From IMG/VR virus record IMGVR_UViG_3300003852_000043, positions 1 through 29,033 of that record: 29,033 nt of DNA. One strand, written 5' to 3'. The notes under the pieces are model-generated. The model searched no databases. It was not told where the DNA came from and worked only from the letters and a program-made list of their open reading frames with translations. Origin of the DNA: a virus. Numbering within the stretch: the stretch's first letter is position 1; each line of letters starts with the position of its first letter. Position numbers and translations under genes: made by a program. This document shows, one piece after another, positions 5,980 through 17,458 of the stretch.

Positions 5980-6612
5980 TTATTTTACGTAAAGCATTCC
6001 CTTATCACCTTGCATTATATCCGTATTATCTATAGGATGATAATCTAATTCAAATTGTATAGTTCGTTGTATATCAGTGCAAGCAATTTGTGTATATTTT
6101 AACTGCTTTAGAATACTGAGACATTCTAGTACATACTCTCGATCTCTGCTTAACCATTCGAATGCAATTAGAGGTACTTTATGAGTAAGTGATCGAAATG
6201 CTAAATGCTCTCTACCTTCTATGCTCAGTTTAATAAGATCAGGCATACCATATTGATTGATTAAATGATCAAGAGTTACAGATTTAACGCTTATCACGTC
6301 TTGTACTGTCTGTAGCAGATCAAAATACTCATCAATGAAAGCTGTTTTTTTTGTGATTCTTGCGTGGTGTTTAAAGTCAGGCCAAAGAAAGCTATTACCA
6401 GATTCCTTTGATAAGAAGAAACTAACTTTGTCAGATACAACATCTGACACTACACCCTCGATGAGATTAACACAATTCAAAGGAGATAGTTTAAATAGAG
6501 TACAAAATGTTGGGTGGCCTTCTACTGCAACTATATCCACTTCGGGGTACGCTGATATAACAGACCTAGTGTAATCTCCATGGTTGTAACCTATGTCGAA
6601 TACTAGCTTCAT
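5980..6612 (-). CDS. FkbM-family SAM-dependent methyltransferase
   Basis: A Rossmann-fold methyltransferase of the FkbM type, which usually O-methylates sugars. The SAM-binding motif I is FDIGYNHGDYT at residues 5-15, followed by the acidic strand end VAVEGHP. Further on, SVTLDHLINQYGMPDLIKLS followed by IEGREH matches the FkbM signature (TLDxL....DliKiDvEGaE), with Asp replaced by Ser in that last motif. The length (210 aa) is normal. It follows the DUF366-like gene by five bases. The neighbouring glycosyltransferases (7225-10563) suggest sugar methylation of a phage or host glycan, which is inference. Confidence 0.85.
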   Translation of the reverse strand: MKLVFDIGYNHGDYTRSVISAYPEVDIVAVEGHPTFCTLFKLSPLNCVNLIEGVVSDVVSDKVSFFLSKESGNSFLWPDFKHHARITKKTAFIDEYFDLLQTVQDVISVKSVTLDHLINQYGMPDLIKLSIEGREHLAFRSLTHKVPLIAFEWLSRDREYVLECLSILKQLKYTQIACTDIQRTIQFELDYHPIDNTDIMQGDKGMLYVK

Positions 6613-6617
6613 TTATA

Positions 6618-7199
6618 CTAGGTAACCTTCGTCGTAGCAATAAACAGGTCGTCTACCAAAGGATAAAACATTGCAACGACATCATTCATAAACGCTGTTG
6701 CTTGTTCATCTGTCAGATTTGTAGAGTATGCAAATGCTGGTGCACTCTTACCTGCAGTAATATTGATACCAGTATGTCCGAGTGCAATATTGTTTCTCGA
6801 CACCGTTATACTAACACTGGACTTACCTTTAAGTTGCGTAATACCACCTTGAGTGTGTTCTGCATGAACAATCAAATCATCTCCATCAACTTCAATAGGT
6901 TTGTGAATATACTTTGAACTGAGAAGATTAGCGATCTGAGTATTGAACAACCGCTGAAATGCGACTGCACCGAGTGGGCAAAGGTTAGGAATCTCCCAAC
7001 AGAAGTTGATAGCATCATCACTCTTAATAAAGTCGTTGTTCAATGAGTCTTCAAGATCGATCAAATTAATCGTAACGTCCATCGGAGCTCTGAAAGCGAT
7101 AATATTACCGATCGGTAGAGTCTTATCACGAAAATACTTGTAAGCAAAACGAGAGTGGATGGTGTCGCCGTTGTAGACTTTAATATCAGGAATAATCAT
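6618..7199 (-). CDS. DUF366-like protein
   Basis: A 193-aa protein resembling DUF366, a family best known from archaea and of uncertain function. Matching blocks in order: HSRFAYKYF (residues 16-24), IIAFRAPMDV, LIDLEDSLNNDFIKSDDAINF (DLED....fI.S.Dm.hFi in the family), the GDDL strand, VSITVSRNNIALGHTGINI, and a C-terminal EQATAFMNDVVAMFYPLVDD segment. It begins right after a strong sigma70-like promoter and heads the operon DUF366 - FkbM - gp62-like - DUF6899-like. The phage also encodes FolE and QueE in this window, so a link with 7-deazaguanine metabolism is possible, but nothing in the protein proves it. Confidence 0.7.
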   Translation of the reverse strand: MIIPDIKVYNGDTIHSRFAYKYFRDKTLPIGNIIAFRAPMDVTINLIDLEDSLNNDFIKSDDAINFCWEIPNLCPLGAVAFQRLFNTQIANLLSSKYIHKPIEVDGDDLIVHAEHTQGGITQLKGKSSVSITVSRNNIALGHTGINITAGKSAPAFAYSTNLTDEQATAFMNDVVAMFYPLVDDLFIATTKVT

Positions 7200-7205
7200 A
7201 AAAAT

Positions 7206-7233
7206 ATTATAGCTTATATTTTTATCAATTCAA
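7206..7233 (-). promoter_or_regulatory. Sigma70-like promoter for the DUF366 operon
   Basis: Minus strand TTGAAT (7233-7228), 16 bp, perfect TATAAT (7211-7206), six bases, ATG at 7199. The predicted transcription start coincides with the A of the start codon. Confidence 0.8.
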
Positions 7234-8064
7234 CGTGTTATGTATTTTATTTACGAAGCTTTTTGCCATAGATTGAGTCGTGTTGTGTTGTATTAAGTGG
7301 TTGTAAAAATCTTCTTGTAATTCGTCATACTTTGAACCAGCTAGAAGCTTCTTACATAGATCTTTAGGAAAGGATACCATTGTAAGATCTGGACACTTAT
7401 CTATGCCTATGAAATATGGTAAGCACCCGTTAGCCATAATCTCGTAATGTCTCATGCAATCCCAACCTGCCTTTTTTGTGGTAACACCGTAACGAGCCTC
7501 CTGATATCCTTTGTAATAACCTTCTTCGTTTTTATAAATGTAGGTTGATCGATCTCTAGGATCACATATAGAGAAATCTCGAGTCTTAGTGGTGCAATAT
7601 TTTATTTTGTCTGTGGGTATAGCAAAAGATATGGGATATAACCTAGCGTGATCATATATTAGCTCTCGCTTAAAATACAATACACCTAGATTATAAACTG
7701 GATGTATGTTTGTTTCATCTTCACCGTCTACAGCAATTACTTTATTTGGTGGGTAATATTTTAGTATGTCTGTAATATAGTCTGAAAATCTCCAGATTGA
7801 ACCATATACAATGAAATCATAGAATTTATTCTTTATCTTTGCAGTTATATCGCTTCGATCAGCTGTATCATCCGGAAGCACTCTAGTAACGGAAAACCCT
7901 TTACCGTACAGTCTGCTAGCGGCGTCTTTATCGAATGCAATATAGTTATGAAGTTGCTTATTATGATCTACTACATCACTACCAAATAGCTCCTTTAAAC
8001 CTATCAATAAACAATCATTTTGATAGTCTACGTGGTCGCCTTTTGTCAAATATAATATCTTCAC
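7225..8064 (-). CDS. Glycosyltransferase-like protein (GT-B type, family uncertain)
   Basis: A 279-aa protein likely to transfer a sugar. The N-terminal half looks like a Rossmann domain (MKILYLTKGD, FDFIVYGS-type strands, NKVIAVDGEDE). The C-terminal half has a segment GWDCMRHYEIMANGCLPYFI, the type seen in exostosin- and CgeB-like GT-B enzymes just before the donor-binding loop, followed by ...CPDLTMVSFPKDL. The start is GTG at 8064, sharing one base with the preceding TAG stop, so it is probably translated by re-initiation. It is the last of four coupled glycosyltransferase genes. The donor and acceptor cannot be read from the sequence. Confidence 0.7.
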   Translation of the reverse strand: MKILYLTKGDHVDYQNDCLLIGLKELFGSDVVDHNKQLHNYIAFDKDAASRLYGKGFSVTRVLPDDTADRSDITAKIKNKFYDFIVYGSIWRFSDYITDILKYYPPNKVIAVDGEDETNIHPVYNLGVLYFKRELIYDHARLYPISFAIPTDKIKYCTTKTRDFSICDPRDRSTYIYKNEEGYYKGYQEARYGVTTKKAGWDCMRHYEIMANGCLPYFIGIDKCPDLTMVSFPKDLCKKLLAGSKYDELQEDFYNHLIQHNTTQSMAKSFVNKIHNTLN

Positions 8065-9005
8065 TATGACAGAAATACCTTGTTAAATTGATCCATAACA
8101 TTTTTTGGTGTATATTCAGCTACTAAGTTCTTGTAGCACCCTACTGTACGCATTTCTGTTTTAAAATTTAGAAGATGAAATAAACACTCCTCTGCATTTG
8201 AATACCACATACCTAAGTCTTTTAACAGTGTACGATGAGCTTGGTCTAGACCATGTATGCTAGCTATAACAGGTTTATCTAGAAAAAGAAACTCACTAAT
8301 AGCTAACCCAAAGCTTTCACCGTGATTTCTTGCATGTATCATAGCATCACACATGCAGATATAATTAGACTTGTTTTGTAGGTCATATGTACCTTCTATG
8401 TAGATAATATTTTTATGTGTATAGAATGGACGGGTATTCATAAAAACAAAATACAAATCATCTCGCTTTTCAACAGCCTCTATAACAGCTTGATGTACAT
8501 ACGGGAGATCAAACTCTGTATAGCCACCGTGACGACCTATAACAGTAGCGTTTTGCGGTATACCTAGTTTATCCTTTAAACTGAAATCGTTAGGCTGGGG
8601 TAGATCGACAACATATGGTACATACACATCGCTCTCCATTTTATTAGCCAACCACTTCGAGATGTATGCGTATTTGTCTCCATGAGGTTCGCTTCGCTGA
8701 AATACAGCGTGAACTATATTCTTAACATTAGGAACTAGTAATCCATCGTTTTCACCTGCTTTTTGATAATAAACATATTCTATATTGTTCTTATAAACAA
8801 ACTCAAATGACTCTTCGAATCGGTCATATAGAAATACTTCAAAACGGTCTTGAAACTTTTTAAGTGTACTCAGGTCTTTATTTTTACTAGATATGATGTA
8901 TGACTTATTACCTAGTATAGTCTCATTGTATAAGGCGTAATCATAAAGCGCAACTTCAGTACCTCTAATACCTAGCTGATTTGAATGAAAAGCTATCTTC
9001 TTCAT
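8064..9005 (-). CDS. Glycosyltransferase, GT4-like (GT-B fold)
   Basis: A 313-aa GT-B enzyme. The N-terminus SNQLGIRGTEVALYDYA (about residues 8-24) is the glycine-rich acceptor-side loop of family 4 enzymes. The donor-side signature is HGESFGLAISEFLFLDKPVI (229-248), with the E-x7-E pair at E230/E238. The length is a little short for GT4 (usually 350-400 aa). The ATG overlaps the upstream stop as ATGA (9002-9005), and a GGGGA lies about nine bases upstream. Part of the glycosyltransferase operon 10563-7225. Likely a cytoplasmic retaining glycosyltransferase; substrate unknown. Confidence 0.85.
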   Translation of the reverse strand: MKKIAFHSNQLGIRGTEVALYDYALYNETILGNKSYIISSKNKDLSTLKKFQDRFEVFLYDRFEESFEFVYKNNIEYVYYQKAGENDGLLVPNVKNIVHAVFQRSEPHGDKYAYISKWLANKMESDVYVPYVVDLPQPNDFSLKDKLGIPQNATVIGRHGGYTEFDLPYVHQAVIEAVEKRDDLYFVFMNTRPFYTHKNIIYIEGTYDLQNKSNYICMCDAMIHARNHGESFGLAISEFLFLDKPVIASIHGLDQAHRTLLKDLGMWYSNAEECLFHLLNFKTEMRTVGCYKNLVAEYTPKNVMDQFNKVFLS

Positions 9006-9694
9006 ACATTATTTCCCCACTTCTTAAATAAGTTTTGAGATTGACCATCCGTCATATTGTGTTTATTCTCGCTTGTTAGTAGATGATGTGAACCACTCAC
9101 CATATGATACACTCTACTGTTACATACCAGAGCGTGTTTAATATTCTTAGATTGCAGAGATAGAGCGTAGTCATTGTCTTGATACCAGAATTCAAATTTC
9201 TCATCAAACAATTTACACTGCTCTATAACACTTTTATGCAACACTATACACCAGCCAGTTATCTCAAACGATGTGCGATAACCTAAGTGAAAGAGCTTAT
9301 CCGGTTTCATTCCTCTTTTTATATGCCAATTAGGTTCCCACGGTGAGAGTGATTTTATATCCGGGTACTGTTCGTATACTTTATCTATTTGCGTTAACCA
9401 ATTCTGAGTAAAGATTACATCATTATTTGATATGATCACCCAATCTGTTTCAAGATCCTTTATACCAAAATTAAGAAACCTATTATAGTTAAAGGTCTCA
9501 TTTGGTGTGATAACATCACATCCTTGATATACAAAACCTTCTGACAAATAGTTGGTATTTGTCTCAACTATCTTTATCTTGAAGTTAGTATCTGGTTGGG
9601 AAAGCTTTAGCGTATTAATAGCTCTCTGGGTCATACCATACAAGTTCAAGTCTTTTGTATTCGATAGGAATACGCATGTAATTTTATCTATCAT
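9002..9694 (-). CDS. Glycosyltransferase, GT2-like (GT-A fold)
   Basis: A 230-aa GT-A enzyme. The first strand ITCVFLSNT and the NYLSEGF / NYNRFLNFGIK region resemble family 2 nucleotide-binding folds. The metal/nucleotide motif is SNND at about residues 89-92, inside DWVIISNNDVIF. A later FDEKFEFWYQDNDYALSL block corresponds to the acidic catalytic-base region (usually ED; here QDND), and GWCIVLHKSVIEQCKLFDE is typical of GT2 rhamnosyltransferase-like proteins. It is coupled to both neighbours by 4-base ATGA overlaps (9691-9694 and 9002-9005). Substrate unknown. Confidence 0.82.
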   Translation of the reverse strand: MIDKITCVFLSNTKDLNLYGMTQRAINTLKLSQPDTNFKIKIVETNTNYLSEGFVYQGCDVITPNETFNYNRFLNFGIKDLETDWVIISNNDVIFTQNWLTQIDKVYEQYPDIKSLSPWEPNWHIKRGMKPDKLFHLGYRTSFEITGWCIVLHKSVIEQCKLFDEKFEFWYQDNDYALSLQSKNIKHALVCNSRVYHMVSGSHHLLTSENKHNMTDGQSQNLFKKWGNNV

Positions 9695-10563
9695 ATGTGA
9701 TGCTTTGTAAAGATATCTTTCATTATCTGTTTAACTTCGTCAGGCGTAGTATCAGGTACGCAACCTTGCCACGCTGGCAATACACCATGCTTTCGCTTAA
9801 ATATTTCTGCACCTCGACGAATATTATCCTGCCAATCAGATCGCGGTCTGATAGAGCTCGACTTTTCTGAGCATTCAATCTCATCAAGATAGTCTGTGCT
9901 GTTAGCTAAATCAGGCCAATTCCAATAAGGTGTACAGTAACCTGCTTTAGCTATCCTGTAATCGTGATCAACATGCTCAAAAGCGTTTGTATACTCTTCG
10001 TCTATTAAACCAACTTTGTCGAGAACCTCTCTGGTGTAGTAGCAAAAGGCACCTACACTGTTCTGATTAATACCTATCTGTACTCCATTACCATAGTCAA
10101 CAATATATCGTGGCTTAGGAGCACCACCGGAAACATTACCTTTGTTAGCTGGCCCGTGATATGCAAAGCTAAGATGTTGTATACCAGTTTTATTTCTTGC
10201 ATTTATGTAAGCATCAAATACATCTGGTCTCTTAATAACAATGTCATCTTCTATTAAAAAGATATGATCACAACCATCATCCAGGAGCTGCTGAAACGCT
10301 ATATTTTTAGATTTACCTACACCTAAATTCTGCTTATTAACCACAACTCTTAAACCACAAGCTGGTAATCGGACGAGAGGTTTGTCGGTATCTACATATG
10401 GTATATTATCTATTGCTGTACTCGTTATGTCTGAAGTTCCATCATTTACAACGACTAACTCATTAATTTTGCCGAAAGGTATAGATTTAAAACACTTTTC
10501 AAAGAAGGCTGGACGATTGCACGTTATGATACCGACGCCTATTTTTCCATTTATATCGTTCAT
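9691..10563 (-). CDS. Glycosyltransferase, GT2-like (GT-A fold)
   Basis: A 290-aa GT-A enzyme and the first gene of the glycosyltransferase operon. The N-terminus IGVGIITCNRPAFFEKCFKS (residues 7-26) with LVVVNDGTSD is the classic family 2 start. The metal-binding acidic motif is FLIEDDIVI (102-110). VGLIDEEYTNAFEHVDHDYRI supplies the acceptor-side acidic residues (EHVDHD). The C-terminal 80 residues (WQDNIRRGAEIFKRKHG and on) look like an added helical segment. No convincing promoter is visible upstream; the 32-base gap to the divergent gene at 10596 holds that gene's late box on the other strand. Confidence 0.87.
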   Translation of the reverse strand: MNDINGKIGVGIITCNRPAFFEKCFKSIPFGKINELVVVNDGTSDITSTAIDNIPYVDTDKPLVRLPACGLRVVVNKQNLGVGKSKNIAFQQLLDDGCDHIFLIEDDIVIKRPDVFDAYINARNKTGIQHLSFAYHGPANKGNVSGGAPKPRYIVDYGNGVQIGINQNSVGAFCYYTREVLDKVGLIDEEYTNAFEHVDHDYRIAKAGYCTPYWNWPDLANSTDYLDEIECSEKSSSIRPRSDWQDNIRRGAEIFKRKHGVLPAWQGCVPDTTPDEVKQIMKDIFTKHHI

Positions 10564-10595: not shown

Positions 10596-11282
10596 ATGGC
10601 AACTAACACAGTCAATATTATCAATCTATTGAACCTACCTCAGGCTCAATCGATTGTAGACGGTAATTTCTTTATTGTTCAGAACGAACTCGGTACTCAG
10701 ATCATAGACTGGGCAGACGTACCTGTTGTTCGCGTCGATGACGCTGGTGGTAGCACAATAACATCTCTAACAGCAACAACTATTGAAACATCTAGTGTAG
10801 TTACCACAACTCTATCAGCTCTATCAATTTTTTCAAACGGTAATACAGGTGTAACAGTCGGTGGAGAATATTACAATGCATTTACAGTTGATAACGGTAT
10901 TGTAACTAGCGCTGTATATACCATTGGTAGTCCTGAATATGTAGACATTTTAACAACTCAGTTACCTACTCTATGTGCAGGGTTGTCAGATGTGTTTAAG
11001 AGGCTGTATATAGACTATACATCCGCAAATACGAGTCAATCTCAATTGGCTTCCAGTTTTGCAGTAAGCTTCACAAATGTGACTCTCCCAACTGAGTTAT
11101 CATCACCTGGTAATATAATACAACCATCAGATATTAACTGGAATTGTACACCTCCTATTACCAGTAGTCCGATGTTTAGTAACTTTCAGAATAACGCCGG
11201 TTTCTTATCAATGCAAGTTGACCTCAACTATACACCATCTGAGAGTATTGAATTCTACCTAAAGGTTACTAGAGCGTATTAA
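10596..11282 (+). CDS. Putative virion structural protein (fibre/whisker-like)
   Basis: A 228-aa protein with no firm family. It is rich in Thr, Ser, Asn and Val. The first 50 residues (INLLNLPQAQSIVDGNFFIV, then GTQIIDWADVPVVR) resemble the start of many marine T4-like fibre or neck-associated proteins. A Thr/Ser-rich linker (about 54-78) follows, and then a predicted beta-sandwich with few charged residues. A late promoter box immediately upstream supports a virion role. It is the only gene on the plus strand in the first 15 kb, and its stop codon overlaps that of the convergent kinase gene through TTAA (11279-11282). Fibre, whisker or head decoration are all possible. Confidence 0.65.
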   Translation: MATNTVNIINLLNLPQAQSIVDGNFFIVQNELGTQIIDWADVPVVRVDDAGGSTITSLTATTIETSSVVTTTLSALSIFSNGNTGVTVGGEYYNAFTVDNGIVTSAVYTIGSPEYVDILTTQLPTLCAGLSDVFKRLYIDYTSANTSQSQLASSFAVSFTNVTLPTELSSPGNIIQPSDINWNCTPPITSSPMFSNFQNNAGFLSMQVDLNYTPSESIEFYLKVTRAY

Positions 11283-12074: not shown

Positions 12075-12836
12075 TTAAACGGATAGAGCTTTGTTCCAGA
12101 TCATCAATTGAAGTCTTGGACTGAATTTAACACAGTATTGTTTACAGATGTCTGCAACATATGCTGATTGTTTACTTTGCTCATCACGGGAACCGCAACA
12201 TGGCATAAGCCATATAAGAGATTTTGGAAGCTTGACTACCGGAGAATTTACAAAGTTCCGGTCAATCTCCTTAACATCTTCTTCACTCTTAACTACAAAC
12301 TTAAAACACGCATTAGCTTGCACTAATACTTTGAGAACTTCTGGTACGTATCGCTTATCTTCAGGGTCACCACCAAGAGCTAGCTTAGGTGATACTGTAA
12401 ATGTTACAGAGAATAAGTTTACCCAATCTGAATGCGGCATAACGGTACCGTTAGTCTCAATATCTATCCGAGGTAGGAATTCATACTTCTCTGCAAGACG
12501 TTTAATAAAGTTAATCAACGGTTCCTGTCTTAAAAGCGGTTCACCACCTGTAATTTTTAGAAGCGCACCGTTTTGAAGCTTTTCAATATATCCATTCTTC
12601 TCTAATAGAGCGAACGTCTCATCAAACGTCAATTTATTCTTCTGTGACCATGATACGAACGAATCACAACCATAAGGTGAATCTACAGACGCAAAACCTT
12701 TACACGTAAGGTTGCAGCCAAAGAGTCGAAGAAATACTGATGGAAAACCTGCAAAGCGTCCTTCACCTTCAACTGTATAAAATATTTCTGGTTCAGAGTT
12801 AACACCAGCAAAGAGTAGATAATTATCGTCTGTCAT
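12075..12836 (-). CDS. queE: 7-carboxy-7-deazaguanine synthase QueE-like radical SAM enzyme
   Basis: Radical SAM enzyme that contracts 6-carboxytetrahydropterin to 7-carboxy-7-deazaguanine on the way to preQ0. Visible family marks: FYTVEGEGRFAGFPSVFLRL (residues 19-38, the QueE substrate loop), then the cluster region with C41, C45 and C57, TGGEP at 96-100 (SAM binding), DIETNGT, and TVSPKLALGGDPEDK. The usual cluster motif is Cx3Cx2C; here it is Cx3Cx11C, with Lys/Gly where the third Cys normally sits, so the third ligand is either C57 or missing. Length (253 aa) is normal. The gene starts directly after a sigma70-like promoter and precedes a P-loop kinase. FolE, the first enzyme of the same pathway, is encoded at 15153; QueD, QueC and a DNA transglycosylase are not in this window. 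Confidence 0.88.
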   Translation of the reverse strand: MTDDNYLLFAGVNSEPEIFYTVEGEGRFAGFPSVFLRLFGCNLTCKGFASVDSPYGCDSFVSWSQKNKLTFDETFALLEKNGYIEKLQNGALLKITGGEPLLRQEPLINFIKRLAEKYEFLPRIDIETNGTVMPHSDWVNLFSVTFTVSPKLALGGDPEDKRYVPEVLKVLVQANACFKFVVKSEEDVKEIDRNFVNSPVVKLPKSLIWLMPCCGSRDEQSKQSAYVADICKQYCVKFSPRLQLMIWNKALSV

Positions 12837-15152: not shown

Positions 15153-15812
15153 ATGGAACAATCAAAAAGTATTATAAAACTACCATTTGCTAACGGAACA
15201 CACCCTCGTTCTGTAGAAGAAAAGAATAAAATCATACAAAACGCTGCAGAAGCGTATGCAAAATATCTAGATGCACTAGGTTTTGATTGGAGAAATGACC
15301 CAAATTCATCTAATACACCTACTCGAGTTGCCAAAGCATTTGTTAATGACCTCGCGGCTGGTTGCTACGCCGAACCACCAAAAATTACAGCATTTGATAA
15401 TGTTGACAAGTATGATGGTATCGTATGTCAGAATAATATCAAAGTAGTATCGCTTTGCTCTCATCACCACTTAGCCTTCACAGGTGTTGCGCATGTTGCG
15501 TATATTCCTTCTAAGCACGGTAAAGTTATCGGACTCTCTAAGTTGAATCGAATTGTAGAGTATTTTGCTCGTCGACCACAGGTTCAAGAGAATCTTACAA
15601 TGCAGATCTCGAAATATATTGATGAGGTCTGTGAAGGAAACAATGGTACAGCTGTTGTTATCGAAGCAGATCACACATGCTGCTCACATCGTGGTATTGG
15701 TCATAACTCTACAATGAGAACAGCTAGAATGACTGGAGCGTTTCTTGATAATAAGGATCAATCACGTTCGGAATTCTACAAGTTTGTAGAGTTTGCTAAG
15801 ACTAACAAGTAA
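15153..15812 (+). CDS. folE: GTP cyclohydrolase I (FolE)
   Basis: Converts GTP to 7,8-dihydroneopterin triphosphate, the first step of both folate and 7-deazaguanine (preQ0) synthesis. This 219-aa protein has the full family core: TPTRVAKAF (residues 55-63), LCSHHHLAFTGVAHVAYIP (101-119) with zinc ligands C102 and H105 and the neighbouring histidines, GLSKLNRIVEYFARRPQVQE (127-146), and HTCCSHRGI with the second zinc cysteine C176. Length and motifs are normal, so it should be active. It starts six bases after its own -10 box and faces the late protease-like gene tail to tail. With queE at 12075 it points to a deazaguanine route in this phage; folate supply is the alternative. Confidence 0.96.
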   Translation: MEQSKSIIKLPFANGTHPRSVEEKNKIIQNAAEAYAKYLDALGFDWRNDPNSSNTPTRVAKAFVNDLAAGCYAEPPKITAFDNVDKYDGIVCQNNIKVVSLCSHHHLAFTGVAHVAYIPSKHGKVIGLSKLNRIVEYFARRPQVQENLTMQISKYIDEVCEGNNGTAVVIEADHTCCSHRGIGHNSTMRTARMTGAFLDNKDQSRSEFYKFVEFAKTNK

Positions 15813-15838
15813 TATTAAACGACTTTCGACTTGTTAGT
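15801..15838. repeat. 10-bp perfect inverted repeat at the folE / protease-like gene junction
   Basis: ACTAACAAGT (15801-15810) and ACTTGTTAGT (15829-15838), 18 bases apart, spanning the stop codons of the two convergent genes. Because the arms are inverted, they encode Thr-Asn-Lys near the end of both proteins. The RNA hairpin would form in either direction. There is no T-tract, so a bidirectional terminator or 3'-end protector is only a suggestion. Confidence 0.6.
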
Positions 15839-16228
15839 ATCAACTACTGCGTCGATTTTCTTTAAGAATGGCTCTCCAATCAGGACTTTCTCCTGATTGG
15901 AGCTTCTATCTGATAAGCTGAAGGGTACATTCTCGAAAAAGTGTGGTCCGATACGCATATTCAAGTGTACAACGTATCTATCATGTATCTTTTCACCAGC
16001 TAATATCTCAATTGTATCAACTATCTTCATAACAAGTGTTTTATCGTTCACTGTAAGGAACCTAACCTTGTTATCCTTAATAGGTGTTATATTATCTGCG
16101 TGAATAACGTTATAACCAGTGTTACCAGTATCTATCCGAGCAGATAATCGACCAATTCCGTCAATTTCTACCTCCTCGACAGTACCTAACACCTGCTGGG
16201 ATTCAAAAAAATCTTTAAAACGCTTCAC
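15815..16228 (-). CDS. Retropepsin-like aspartic protease-fold protein with head-targeting-like N-terminus
   Basis: A 137-aa protein resembling the retropepsin-like family annotated as putative ATP-dependent zinc protease (PF05618, RimB-type). From residue 14: LGTVEEVEIDGIGRLSARID, then DTG (33-35, the catalytic motif), a short NTGYNVIHAD loop, HDRYVVHLNMRIGPHFFENV, and LSDRS....VLIGEPFLKKIDAVVD near the end. All follow the family order. One DTG per chain means a dimer would be needed for activity. The first ten residues, MKRFKDFFES, precede the domain and resemble T4 capsid-targeting peptides. The start is GTG at 16228, five bases after a late box. Possibly a virion-packaged or assembly protease; activity is not proven. 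Confidence 0.75.
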   Translation of the reverse strand: MKRFKDFFESQQVLGTVEEVEIDGIGRLSARIDTGNTGYNVIHADNITPIKDNKVRFLTVNDKTLVMKIVDTIEILAGEKIHDRYVVHLNMRIGPHFFENVPFSLSDRSSNQEKVLIGEPFLKKIDAVVDTNKSKVV

Positions 16229-16233
16229 TATAG

Positions 16234-16241
16234 TATTTATC
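16234..16241 (-). promoter_or_regulatory. Late promoter box for the retropepsin-like gene
   Basis: GATAAATA on the minus strand, five bases before the GTG at 16228. The box, leader and first codons are nearly identical to those of the 17458 gene. Confidence 0.7.
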
Positions 16242-16253
16242 TCGACTAACTCA

Positions 16254-16261
16254 TATAAATA
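16254..16261 (+). promoter_or_regulatory. Late promoter box for the 16269 gene, exact consensus
   Basis: TATAAATA, identical to the T4 late consensus, seven bases before the ATG at 16269. Only 12 bases separate it from the divergent late box on the other strand. Confidence 0.82.
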
Positions 16262-16268
16262 ACTGTAT

Positions 16269-16847
16269 ATGGTTATTAACGAGAATCACGACATCATGAA
16301 GATCTACAAAGAGAATCTTCAGACACCATCACAGGTACTAGGTATTGGACATGAAAATCTGTCAAAACTTCAAGTACCTACACGCTGCTGTAAGAAATGT
16401 GGTAATTGCCCTGAAGAGTCAGAGGAAGATATGGGTGAAGAGGATGGTGAGACACCTTTAAACTCGTCAACTGAAGAGATGTATCACGATAAGGTATCAG
16501 TTGATATAGACGGTTTGGGTAGAGCTTTCGATATCGTAGATGTAAATGACACTGTTATACCTTACAAGATTAACATCGACTTCAGATCTTGGGGTATTAA
16601 TGGCATAGATGTTAGACCTACAGGTGAAATTTCAGTTAATGCGTTCTGTACAAAGTATGACAACGGTGAAGGTAAAGATATAGAAGTAGAACGCAACTTT
16701 AAGGTTAATCTTGATAAACTAAAAGTGGAATATCATGATGGTAGAGTTATTAAACCATGTGAGCTTCACCTTTATATTGGACCTGATCACGAAGTTCTTT
16801 ATGAAAGATCTTATATTGAGTTCTATATGATCTCAACAGACTTTTAA
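16269..16847 (+). CDS. Late protein with Cys cluster, possible degenerate paralogue of the retropepsin-like protein
   Basis: A 192-aa protein with no firm family. A cysteine cluster (C40, C41, C44, C47: CCKKCGNC) could bind zinc. An acidic segment follows (PEESEEDMGEEDGE). The remaining 125 residues are beta-rich. Several segments echo its divergent neighbour: IDGLGR (there IDGIGR), LYIGP (there MRIGP), and QVLG near the N-terminus of both. If translation began at the second Met (16296), the start MKIYKENL would also match MKRFKDFF. The catalytic DTG is absent, so it is not a protease itself. The late box favours the ATG at 16269. Its stop shares TTAA (16844-16847) with the convergent gene. 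Confidence 0.65.
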   Translation: MVINENHDIMKIYKENLQTPSQVLGIGHENLSKLQVPTRCCKKCGNCPEESEEDMGEEDGETPLNSSTEEMYHDKVSVDIDGLGRAFDIVDVNDTVIPYKINIDFRSWGINGIDVRPTGEISVNAFCTKYDNGEGKDIEVERNFKVNLDKLKVEYHDGRVIKPCELHLYIGPDHEVLYERSYIEFYMISTDF

Positions 16848-17041: not shown

Positions 17042-17458
17042 TTAAACAGATTTGAGGAGACCTTCAACTGTTTTATCTTTAGAACCATACTTGCTAATAA
17101 TAGGCAGAAGCTTGTTAAACGCATCATCTGCGTTAGTTTCATTTATCTCATTAGTGTCAGCACCATCAGCACCTTTAAATTTCAGGTCATTAACAGCAGC
17201 AATATCAGTTTCATCAGGTGAAGCAGTGAAAGCTGTCTTTAAAAGCTTTACCAACATCACATAATTCTCAGATGAGAGCTGTTTTACTTCCGGTTGTTGG
17301 TTTTCGATCGTTTCAGGAGCAGGTTCAGCAGCGTTAGCATCTGCAGCTGGTGCTGCTTCTGCGCCTGGTGCTGGTATAGCTGATTCGGTTGAGCCTAAAG
17401 TAGCATCCTCTTCGGTGAGAATACCATAACGTTGACAGATTGAATTAAAACGCTTCAC
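17042..17458 (-). CDS. Acidic Ala/Pro-rich late protein with MKRF-type N-terminus, 138 aa
   Basis: No family recognised. The N-terminus MKRFNSICQRYGILTEEDAT is a predicted amphipathic helix ending in an LTE motif. A Pro/Ala/Glu-rich disordered segment (about residues 27-60, containing APGAEAAP) follows, then an acidic helical C-terminal part (NYVMLVKLLKTAF, DAFNKLLPIISKYG). The start is GTG at 17458, five bases after a late box. The APGAEAAP tract also occurs as PGAEAA in the portal tail at the left edge. Size, acidity and late timing would fit a prohead core or internal protein. The assignment is inference. Confidence 0.68.
   Translation of the reverse strand: MKRFNSICQRYGILTEEDATLGSTESAIPAPGAEAAPAADANAAEPAPETIENQQPEVKQLSSENYVMLVKLLKTAFTASPDETDIAAVNDLKFKGADGADTNEINETNADDAFNKLLPIISKYGSKDKTVEGLLKSV

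What the first reader, a model, noticed from the sequence alone, without database searches (positions are those of the whole stretch)
15815..16228. Retropepsin-like protease domain on a late, head-leader-bearing phage protein
The protein has a DTG active-site motif in the RIDTG context and the LIGEPFL....VD end of the PF05618-type family, yet is late and starts with a targeting-like peptide. T4 maturation uses a serine-type prohead protease (gp21), so an aspartic-protease fold in this class is unexpected. It could be packaged and act on host proteins after injection, or process virion proteins.
Basis: partly seen in the sequence, partly recalled or inferred. Interest (0 to 1): 0.6.

Follow-up and report, generated by a model that had tools for sequence, protein, structure and literature searches.

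The report
Head-targeted phage polyglutamate-type retropepsin
A T4-like virus of bacteria carries a small, late-made protease with the same fold as the HIV protease and as bacterial enzymes that trim chains of glutamate, tagged at its front with what looks like the address label phages use to pack proteins into their heads for injection into the next host.

Summary
The 137-residue ORF at 15815-16228 (-) is a retropepsin-like aspartic peptidase of Pfam PF05618 (RimB/RloA type), 34.4 bits against a cut-off of 27. Its AlphaFold model (pLDDT 91.5) matches RloA and Lpg0085 crystal structures at Z about 17 and retroviral proteases at Z about 8-9. In relatives found by a search that did not use the active-site motif, D-[T/S]-G-N is present in every representative. 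The basic residues that bind polyglutamate in RloA (K/R31, R84, R108 here) are conserved throughout.

"Late" is supported: a T4-type late box sits 5 nt before the GTG start. "Head leader" is supported by sequence: MKRFKDFF resembles the T4 internal-protein leader MKTYQEFIAE, and 19 of 28 representatives carry the motif, against 0.7% of control windows. There are no virion data for this phage; a fused relative is annotated as a structural protein in Yersinia phage YerA41.

It does not replace gp21: 12 of 16 records searched encode an S77 prohead protease. Many relatives are fused behind a RimK-type ligase; the standalone clade, including this one, has no detectable RimK.

Best reading: a packaged, injected RimB-like protease that removes polyglutamate from host proteins. 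Fold near certain, packaging likely, target inferred.

The parts
15815..16228 (-). Retropepsin-like aspartic peptidase gene, 137 aa, GTG start
   Evidence: ORF; PF05618 34.4 bits; model pLDDT 91.5; Foldseek E 3.7e-9 to RloA; Z 17.6 to 2pma
16199..16228 (-). Capsid-targeting-like leader MKRFKDFFES (residues 1-10)
   Evidence: Aromatics at positions 4 and 7 as in T4 IPII/IPIII MKTYQEFIAE (PMC9026906); motif in 19/28 protease representatives, 0.7% of body windows; pLDDT 57 in this block, against 82-97 in the rest
15827..16195 (-). Retropepsin (PF05618-type) domain, residues 12-134
16121..16132 (-). Active-site motif D33-T34-G35-N36
   Evidence: D, G and N invariant in 41/41 representatives, T or S at 34
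16136..16138 (-). R31, equivalent of RloA K46 (polyglutamate contact)
   Evidence: K or R in 41/41 representatives; RloA residues from PMC12239564
15977..15979 (-). R84, equivalent of RloA R114 (polyglutamate contact)
   Evidence: 41/41; aligned to an Arg of 9g58
15905..15907 (-). R108, equivalent of RloA R137 (polyglutamate contact)
   Evidence: 41/41; aligned to an Arg of 9g58
16234..16241 (-). Late-promoter-like box GATAAATA, 5 nt from the start codon
   Evidence: 7 of 8 NATAAATA boxes in the window end 5-8 nt before a start codon; same pattern in 27 related loci, 79 of 171 boxes
16254..16261 (+). TATAAATA box of the divergent neighbour gene 16269-16847
15153..15812 (+). Convergent neighbour: GTP cyclohydrolase I
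   Evidence: PF01227 E 7e-47; neighbour family in 17 of 28 loci
17042..17458 (-). Leader-bearing neighbour with the same promoter-start-leader DNA (ATAAATACTATTGTGAAGCGTTTT)
   Evidence: family found near the protease in 19 of 28 loci

Best explanation
The gene encodes a member of a phage-specific branch of the RimB/RloA retropepsins. It is transcribed late from a T4-type late promoter, carried into the prohead by a T4-internal-protein-like N-terminal leader, packaged with the DNA and injected. As a homodimer with two DTGN aspartates it would cleave polyglutamate chains, most likely those that RimK-type ligases add to host proteins such as ribosomal protein S6, so that host translation or another tagged process is altered at the very start of infection. 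Shown here: homology, fold (as a model), conserved catalytic and polyglutamate-binding residues, late-promoter box, leader resemblance, and coexistence with the ordinary prohead protease in relatives. Inferred: dimerisation, catalysis, packaging and injection in this phage, polyglutamate as substrate, and the host target.
For: PF05618 above its cut-off. Model pLDDT 91.5, pTM 0.83. VIA Z 17.6/17.4/16.9 to Lpg0085, RloA2 and RloA, and 8.3-9.6 to retroviral and Ddi1 proteases. D33, G35, N36, R84 and R108 invariant and K/R31 kept in 41 representatives, including 23/23 of the group found with a query lacking the motif. In RloA, loss of R114 or R137, the equivalents of R84 and R108, had the strongest effects on polyglutamate cleavage (PMC12239564), and RimB needs its DTG aspartate and removes polyglutamate from S6 (PMC11957791). 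Leader motif in 19/28 representatives against 74/10,555 body windows, shared with unrelated neighbours such as nucleotidyltransferases. Many fused relatives have the same leader type (MKVPSFNEFISEA, MQVQPFKNYLEEA). The fused relative in YerA41 is annotated as structural, and YerA41 particles were studied by LC-MS/MS (PMC7354516). Late box 5 nt before the start. S77 prohead protease present in 12 of 16 records searched, so maturation is otherwise provided.
Against: No virion proteomics for this phage. The YerA41 relative is a fusion without the typical leader, so its virion presence is indirect evidence. The window leader has Glu at 9, not at 10 as in T4. The residue after DTG is Asn, where RloA and retroviral enzymes have Ala. 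No host is known, and it is not known that the host polyglutamylates S6. No RimK was found in 17 records of standalone relatives (57-209 kb), so the substrate would have to be made by the host. The window is a 29 kb fragment.
Confidence: 0.45

Rival explanations
1. The protease works inside the prohead or virion on phage proteins, as an accessory maturation enzyme beside gp21, for example releasing or trimming co-packaged leader proteins encoded next to it.
For: Leader and late promoter place it with head proteins; it lies in a conserved cluster of leader-bearing genes.
Against: gp21-type S77 protease is present in 12 of 16 records searched. The conserved polyglutamate-binding arginines point to a narrow acidic substrate; no run of 5 or more Glu, or of 8 or more acidic residues, was found in the ORFs of the related loci, and no run of 4 or more Glu or 6 or more acidic residues in the window. 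RloA did not cut an encoded DDDDEEEDDD stretch (PMC12239564).
Confidence: 0.2
2. The leader is not functional for packaging; the enzyme is simply made late in the infected cell and removes polyglutamate (or a similar tag) from host or phage proteins there.
For: Same catalytic evidence. Several relatives have diverged leaders (L129, L142, L150).
Against: Leader motif in 19 of 28 representatives and on unrelated neighbours, about 100-fold over body windows; the fused relative is annotated as a structural protein in YerA41.
Confidence: 0.18
3. The protein acts mainly as a regulator, stimulating the host RimK ligase as RimB does, so that polyglutamate is made rather than removed.
For: RimB is bifunctional and stimulates polyglutamate synthesis by RimK (PMC11957791); phages with the ligase keep both domains in one chain.
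Against: Catalytic Asp and Gly are invariant in the standalone clade, in which no RimK was found; this argues that proteolysis is what is kept.
Confidence: 0.08

Closest known systems
RimB of Pseudomonas (retropepsin-like endopeptidase of the RimABK system)
   Same: PF05618 domain, DTG aspartate, no signal peptide, conserved basic residues for polyglutamate
   Different: Phage clade with DTGN instead of DTGA, shorter flap region in the alignment with bacterial relatives, head-type leader, no RimK found in the same records; far below the RimB equivalog cut-off (26 of 200 bits)
RloA/RloA2/RloA3 of Pseudomonas and Lpg0085 of Legionella (9g58, 9g59, 2pma)
   Same: Closest solved structures, Z about 17; R114 and R137 equivalents kept
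   Different: RloA enzymes are secreted, with signal peptide and disulfide; the phage protein has no cysteine and a leader of another kind
Bacterial RimBK hybrid (Desulfotalea, Flavobacteriales; Aureibacter L172)
   Same: Same two domains in one chain in many phage relatives
   Different: Protease is N-terminal in bacteria and C-terminal in phages, where a nucleotidyltransferase domain may come first; the window protein has no ligase domain
T4 internal proteins IPII/IPIII and Alt (head-packaged, injected)
   Same: Leader resembling MKTYQEFIAE, late promoter; Alt is the precedent for a packaged enzyme acting on host proteins (own knowledge)
   Different: Cargo is a peptidase, not a restriction inhibitor or ADP-ribosyltransferase; no virion data
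YerA41 and Mosig fused proteins (QSM00767.1, QOI68969.1)
   Same: Homologous domain in isolated phages; YerA41 copy annotated as structural
   Different: Fused to a RimK-type ATP-grasp; 27-31% identical to the window domain

Membership tests
PF05618 / RimB-RloA retropepsin-like peptidases | Profile match over the curated cut-off | tested here: met
   34.4 bits, cut-off 27, residues 13-135
PF05618 / RimB-RloA retropepsin-like peptidases | Single-lobe retropepsin fold | tested here: met
   Z 16.9-17.6 to RloA, RloA2 and Lpg0085; 8.3-9.6 to retroviral and Ddi1 proteases
PF05618 / RimB-RloA retropepsin-like peptidases | Conserved catalytic D-[T/S]-G | tested here: met
   23/23 representatives of loci found without the motif, 41/41 overall
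PF05618 / RimB-RloA retropepsin-like peptidases | Basic residues contacting polyglutamate (RloA K46, R114, R137) | tested here: met
   K/R31, R84, R108 in 41/41; alignment to 9g58
PF05618 / RimB-RloA retropepsin-like peptidases | Homodimer with two aspartates, and cleavage of polyglutamate | not testable with these tools
   Only a monomer model was made; no assay
RimB or RloA3 equivalog (NCBIfam) | Score over the equivalog cut-off | tested here: not met
   26.2 of 200 and 29.6 of 210 bits: a relative, not a RimB or RloA3 by that definition
Retroviral and RloA retropepsins | Ala after DTG | tested here: not met
   Asn in 41/41 phage representatives; bacterial relatives have DTGA or DSGA
RimK-RimB ligase-protease pair | RimK-type ATP-grasp in the same genome | tested here: inconclusive
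   None in the window, in G001, or in 17 records of standalone relatives, but all may be fragments; present as fusion in other phages
T4 capsid-targeting sequence | Aromatic residues at positions 4 and 7 | tested here: met
   F4 and F7; T4 IPII/IPIII Y4 and F7
T4 capsid-targeting sequence | gp21 site L/I-x-E ending at position 10 | tested here: not met
   F7-F8-E9 in the window; nearest relative L001 has E10 (MKKFNEFYKE), with Y at P3
T4 capsid-targeting sequence | Protein present and processed in the virion | not testable with these tools
   No virion data; only the YerA41 fusion, without a typical leader, is annotated as structural (PMC7354516)
S77 prohead protease (gp21) | Serine-protease family match | tested here: not met
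   No PF03420 match in the window; the window protein has a different fold; relatives encode a separate PF03420 protein

The most novel reading that the evidence does not exclude
A head-packaged, injected deglutamylase: T4-like phages have turned the RimK-RimB tagging system into a virion cargo, with one lineage injecting ligase and protease in one chain and another, including this phage, injecting the protease alone to strip polyglutamate from host proteins at the onset of infection.
Probability: 0.35. Interest if true: 0.75.

Novelty: new variant of a known kind. Interest (0 to 1): 0.55.

Why it matters
If true, it adds proteolytic removal of polyglutamate to the short list of enzymes that phages inject (with T4 Alt as precedent), gives the recently described bacterial retropepsins a viral branch, and makes polyglutamylation of host proteins such as S6 testable as a target in phage-host conflict. 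The phage copies met here carry only generic labels ('glutathione synthetase', 'structural protein', 'ATP-dependant zinc protease', 'putative protease'), so the pattern may have been overlooked.

Tried and rejected
Chance DTG: rejected by profile, fold and conservation. Replacement of gp21: rejected, since 12 of 16 records searched carry an S77 protease. The first conservation count, from the scan with A1, was set aside as circular, because its pattern contained D[TS]GN; it was repeated with the C-terminal part only (A4). Encoded acidic runs as substrate in window and neighbours: none found. A wider C-terminal alignment, A3, had no stretch conserved enough to scan. Bacterial genomes: a standalone relative as query gave no relative and A1 gave two (L176 and L177), not followed up. 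PHROGs has no match for the window protein. 'ATP-dependent zinc protease', the Pfam name, is not supported by the fold or by recent work on RimB and RloA. Papers describing a phage RimB or a phage RimK-RimB fusion: none found in the searches made, which cover open-licence papers only.

Full report
WHAT IS THERE. The ORF at 15815-16228 on the minus strand starts with GTG and encodes 137 residues. The window is the whole of a 29,033-base viral record with T4-type genes: tail sheath stabiliser gp15, UvsY and a DNA helicase. The first 20 kb have no close DNA match among phage GenBank records. The protein reaches PF05618 at 34.4 bits against a cut-off of 27 but stays far below the NCBIfam equivalog cut-offs for RimB and RloA3. 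By sequence alone it finds the RloA crystal structure 9g58 (E 6e-4).

FOLD. An AlphaFold model from the window protein and 20 relatives has mean pLDDT 91.5 and pTM 0.83; the first ten residues are the uncertain part. Foldseek ranks RloA (E 3.7e-9), Lpg0085 and RloA2 first, followed by HIV-1 proteases (E from 2e-4). VIA-align gives Z 17.6, 17.4 and 16.9 for 2pma, 9g59 and 9g58, and 8.3-9.6 for foamy-virus, retroviral and Ddi1 proteases. Among predicted viral proteins the best match is an uncharacterised Caudovirales protein (E 3e-17), and others are named 'ATP-dependant zinc protease' or 'putative protease'.

ACTIVE SITE. The first scan of viral contigs used a pattern that itself contains D[TS]GN, so it cannot be used to judge conservation. 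I therefore repeated it with only the C-terminal part of the domain (residues 47-137). In every ORF of that set that reaches the site, D[T/S]GN is present. After collapsing at 80% identity, D33, G35, N36, R84 and R108 are invariant in 41 of 41 representatives, and in 23 of 23 of the motif-independent group; position 31 is always K or R. In RloA the catalytic residue is D48, and K46, R114 and R137 contact polyglutamate, with R114A and R137A having the strongest effects (PMC12239564). The phmmer alignment to 9g58 and the alignment to bacterial relatives place R84 and R108 on the positions of R114 and R137. The residue after D[T/S]G is Asn in all 41 representatives of this phage clade, where RloA and retroviral enzymes have Ala.

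FAMILY IN PHAGES. Most of the 80 loci kept from the first scan are fusions: a head-type leader, a RimK-type ATP-grasp, then the protease at the C-terminus (459-494 aa), or a nucleotidyltransferase before the ATP-grasp (684-1294 aa). Isolated phages with the fusion are Pelagibacter phage Mosig and Yersinia phages YerA41 and GN1. In bacteria the hybrid has the protease at the N-terminus (PMC11957791; L172). The second scan gave mostly standalone proteins like the window's. No RimK profile match was found in 17 records carrying standalone copies, 57-209 kb long, nor in the window or its closest relative; these records may be fragments. In a FastTree of the domain the members of this phage clade group apart from bacterial RloA/RimB types and from one huge-phage sequence (support 0.95), and standalone copies group together with modest support (0.73).

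LATE. NATAAATA occurs eight times in the window and seven of these end 5-8 nt before a start codon on the same strand: gp15 (1718-2497), the protease (GATAAATA), and the genes at 10596, 14692, 16269, 17042 and 28212. In 27 related loci 79 of 171 boxes have a start codon 4-9 nt downstream, most often exactly 5, against 0-4 for most scrambled boxes; scrambles that overlap the true box score higher (17-60), which I put down to that overlap. The T4 late box begins at -13 (PMC2988020), so transcription would start at or next to the start codon.

LEADER. T4 IPII and IPIII begin MKTYQEFIAE; positions 4 and 7 direct targeting and 8 and 10 processing (PMC9026906). The window has F4 and F7, with Glu at 9 rather than 10; L001 has F4, F7 and E10. 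A motif written to fit T4 and these leaders (so partly post hoc) is found in 19 of 28 protease leaders, 24 of 405 neighbouring N-termini and 74 of 10,555 body windows. The protease and gene 17042 share promoter box, start and first codons almost base for base, as if promoter and leader were a cassette.

NEIGHBOURHOOD. Across 28 loci the protease tends to sit in a conserved cluster, between leader-bearing proteins on one side and GTP cyclohydrolase I, family 14692 and QueE on the other. The window order matches that of its closest relative L001 (L093 in the table).

MECHANISM. Best-supported reading: late synthesis, head targeting, injection, and cleavage of polyglutamate on host proteins. RimB removes polyglutamate from S6 and needs its DTG aspartate (PMC11957791); RloA cleaves runs of 8 or more Glu but not an encoded mixed acidic run (PMC12239564). 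Since no such runs were found among window or neighbour proteins and standalone carriers show no ligase, a host-made tag is the most economical substrate. The general-maturation alternative is weakened by the S77 prohead protease found in 12 of 16 records searched. Packaging is supported indirectly by the YerA41 relative, annotated as structural in a phage whose particles were analysed by LC-MS/MS (PMC7354516); the supplementary table of that paper was not read. Dimerisation, catalysis, packaging of this protein, substrate and host are not shown.

Noticed in passing
window 1718, 10596, 14692, 15815, 16269, 17042, 28212 (genes); loci L093-L156: T4-type late boxes (NATAAATA) lie mostly exactly 5 nt before start codons, so late mRNAs of this phage clade would be leaderless or nearly so; 79 of 171 boxes in 27 loci against 0-4 for most scrambled boxes.
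   Followed up: partly
window 16217-16240 (-) and the start of gene 17042-17458 (-): Two leader-bearing genes with different cargo share promoter box, GTG start and first leader codons (ATAAATACTAT[A/T]GTGAAGCGTTTT), suggesting a promoter-plus-leader cassette that is put in front of different cargo genes.
   Followed up: no
L011, L012, L016, L017, L018, L028, L036, L086, L097, L157: Large phage proteins joining a nucleotidyltransferase, a RimK-type ATP-grasp and a retropepsin, some behind a leader-like start, one with a long further extension (L016, 1294 aa); they recall packaged multi-domain 'polyvalent' proteins.
   Followed up: partly
window 12075-12836 and 15153-15812: QueE-like radical SAM protein and GTP cyclohydrolase I in a conserved cluster, suggesting 7-deazaguanine DNA modification.
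   Followed up: no
window 5980-10563: Block with an FkbM-type methyltransferase and glycosyltransferases in the T4-like phage, possibly for sugar modification of DNA or virion.
   Followed up: no
L118 3137-3778 and relatives in 11 loci: Leader-bearing nucleotidyltransferase-like proteins (PGGFKPPHKGH motif) encoded near the protease, another candidate packaged enzyme.
   Followed up: no
L176 5001-5390 (contig of a Lachnospiraceae MAG, 238,712 bases): A DTGN-type relative 34% identical on a contig binned as bacterial; may be phage sequence in a MAG.
   Followed up: no
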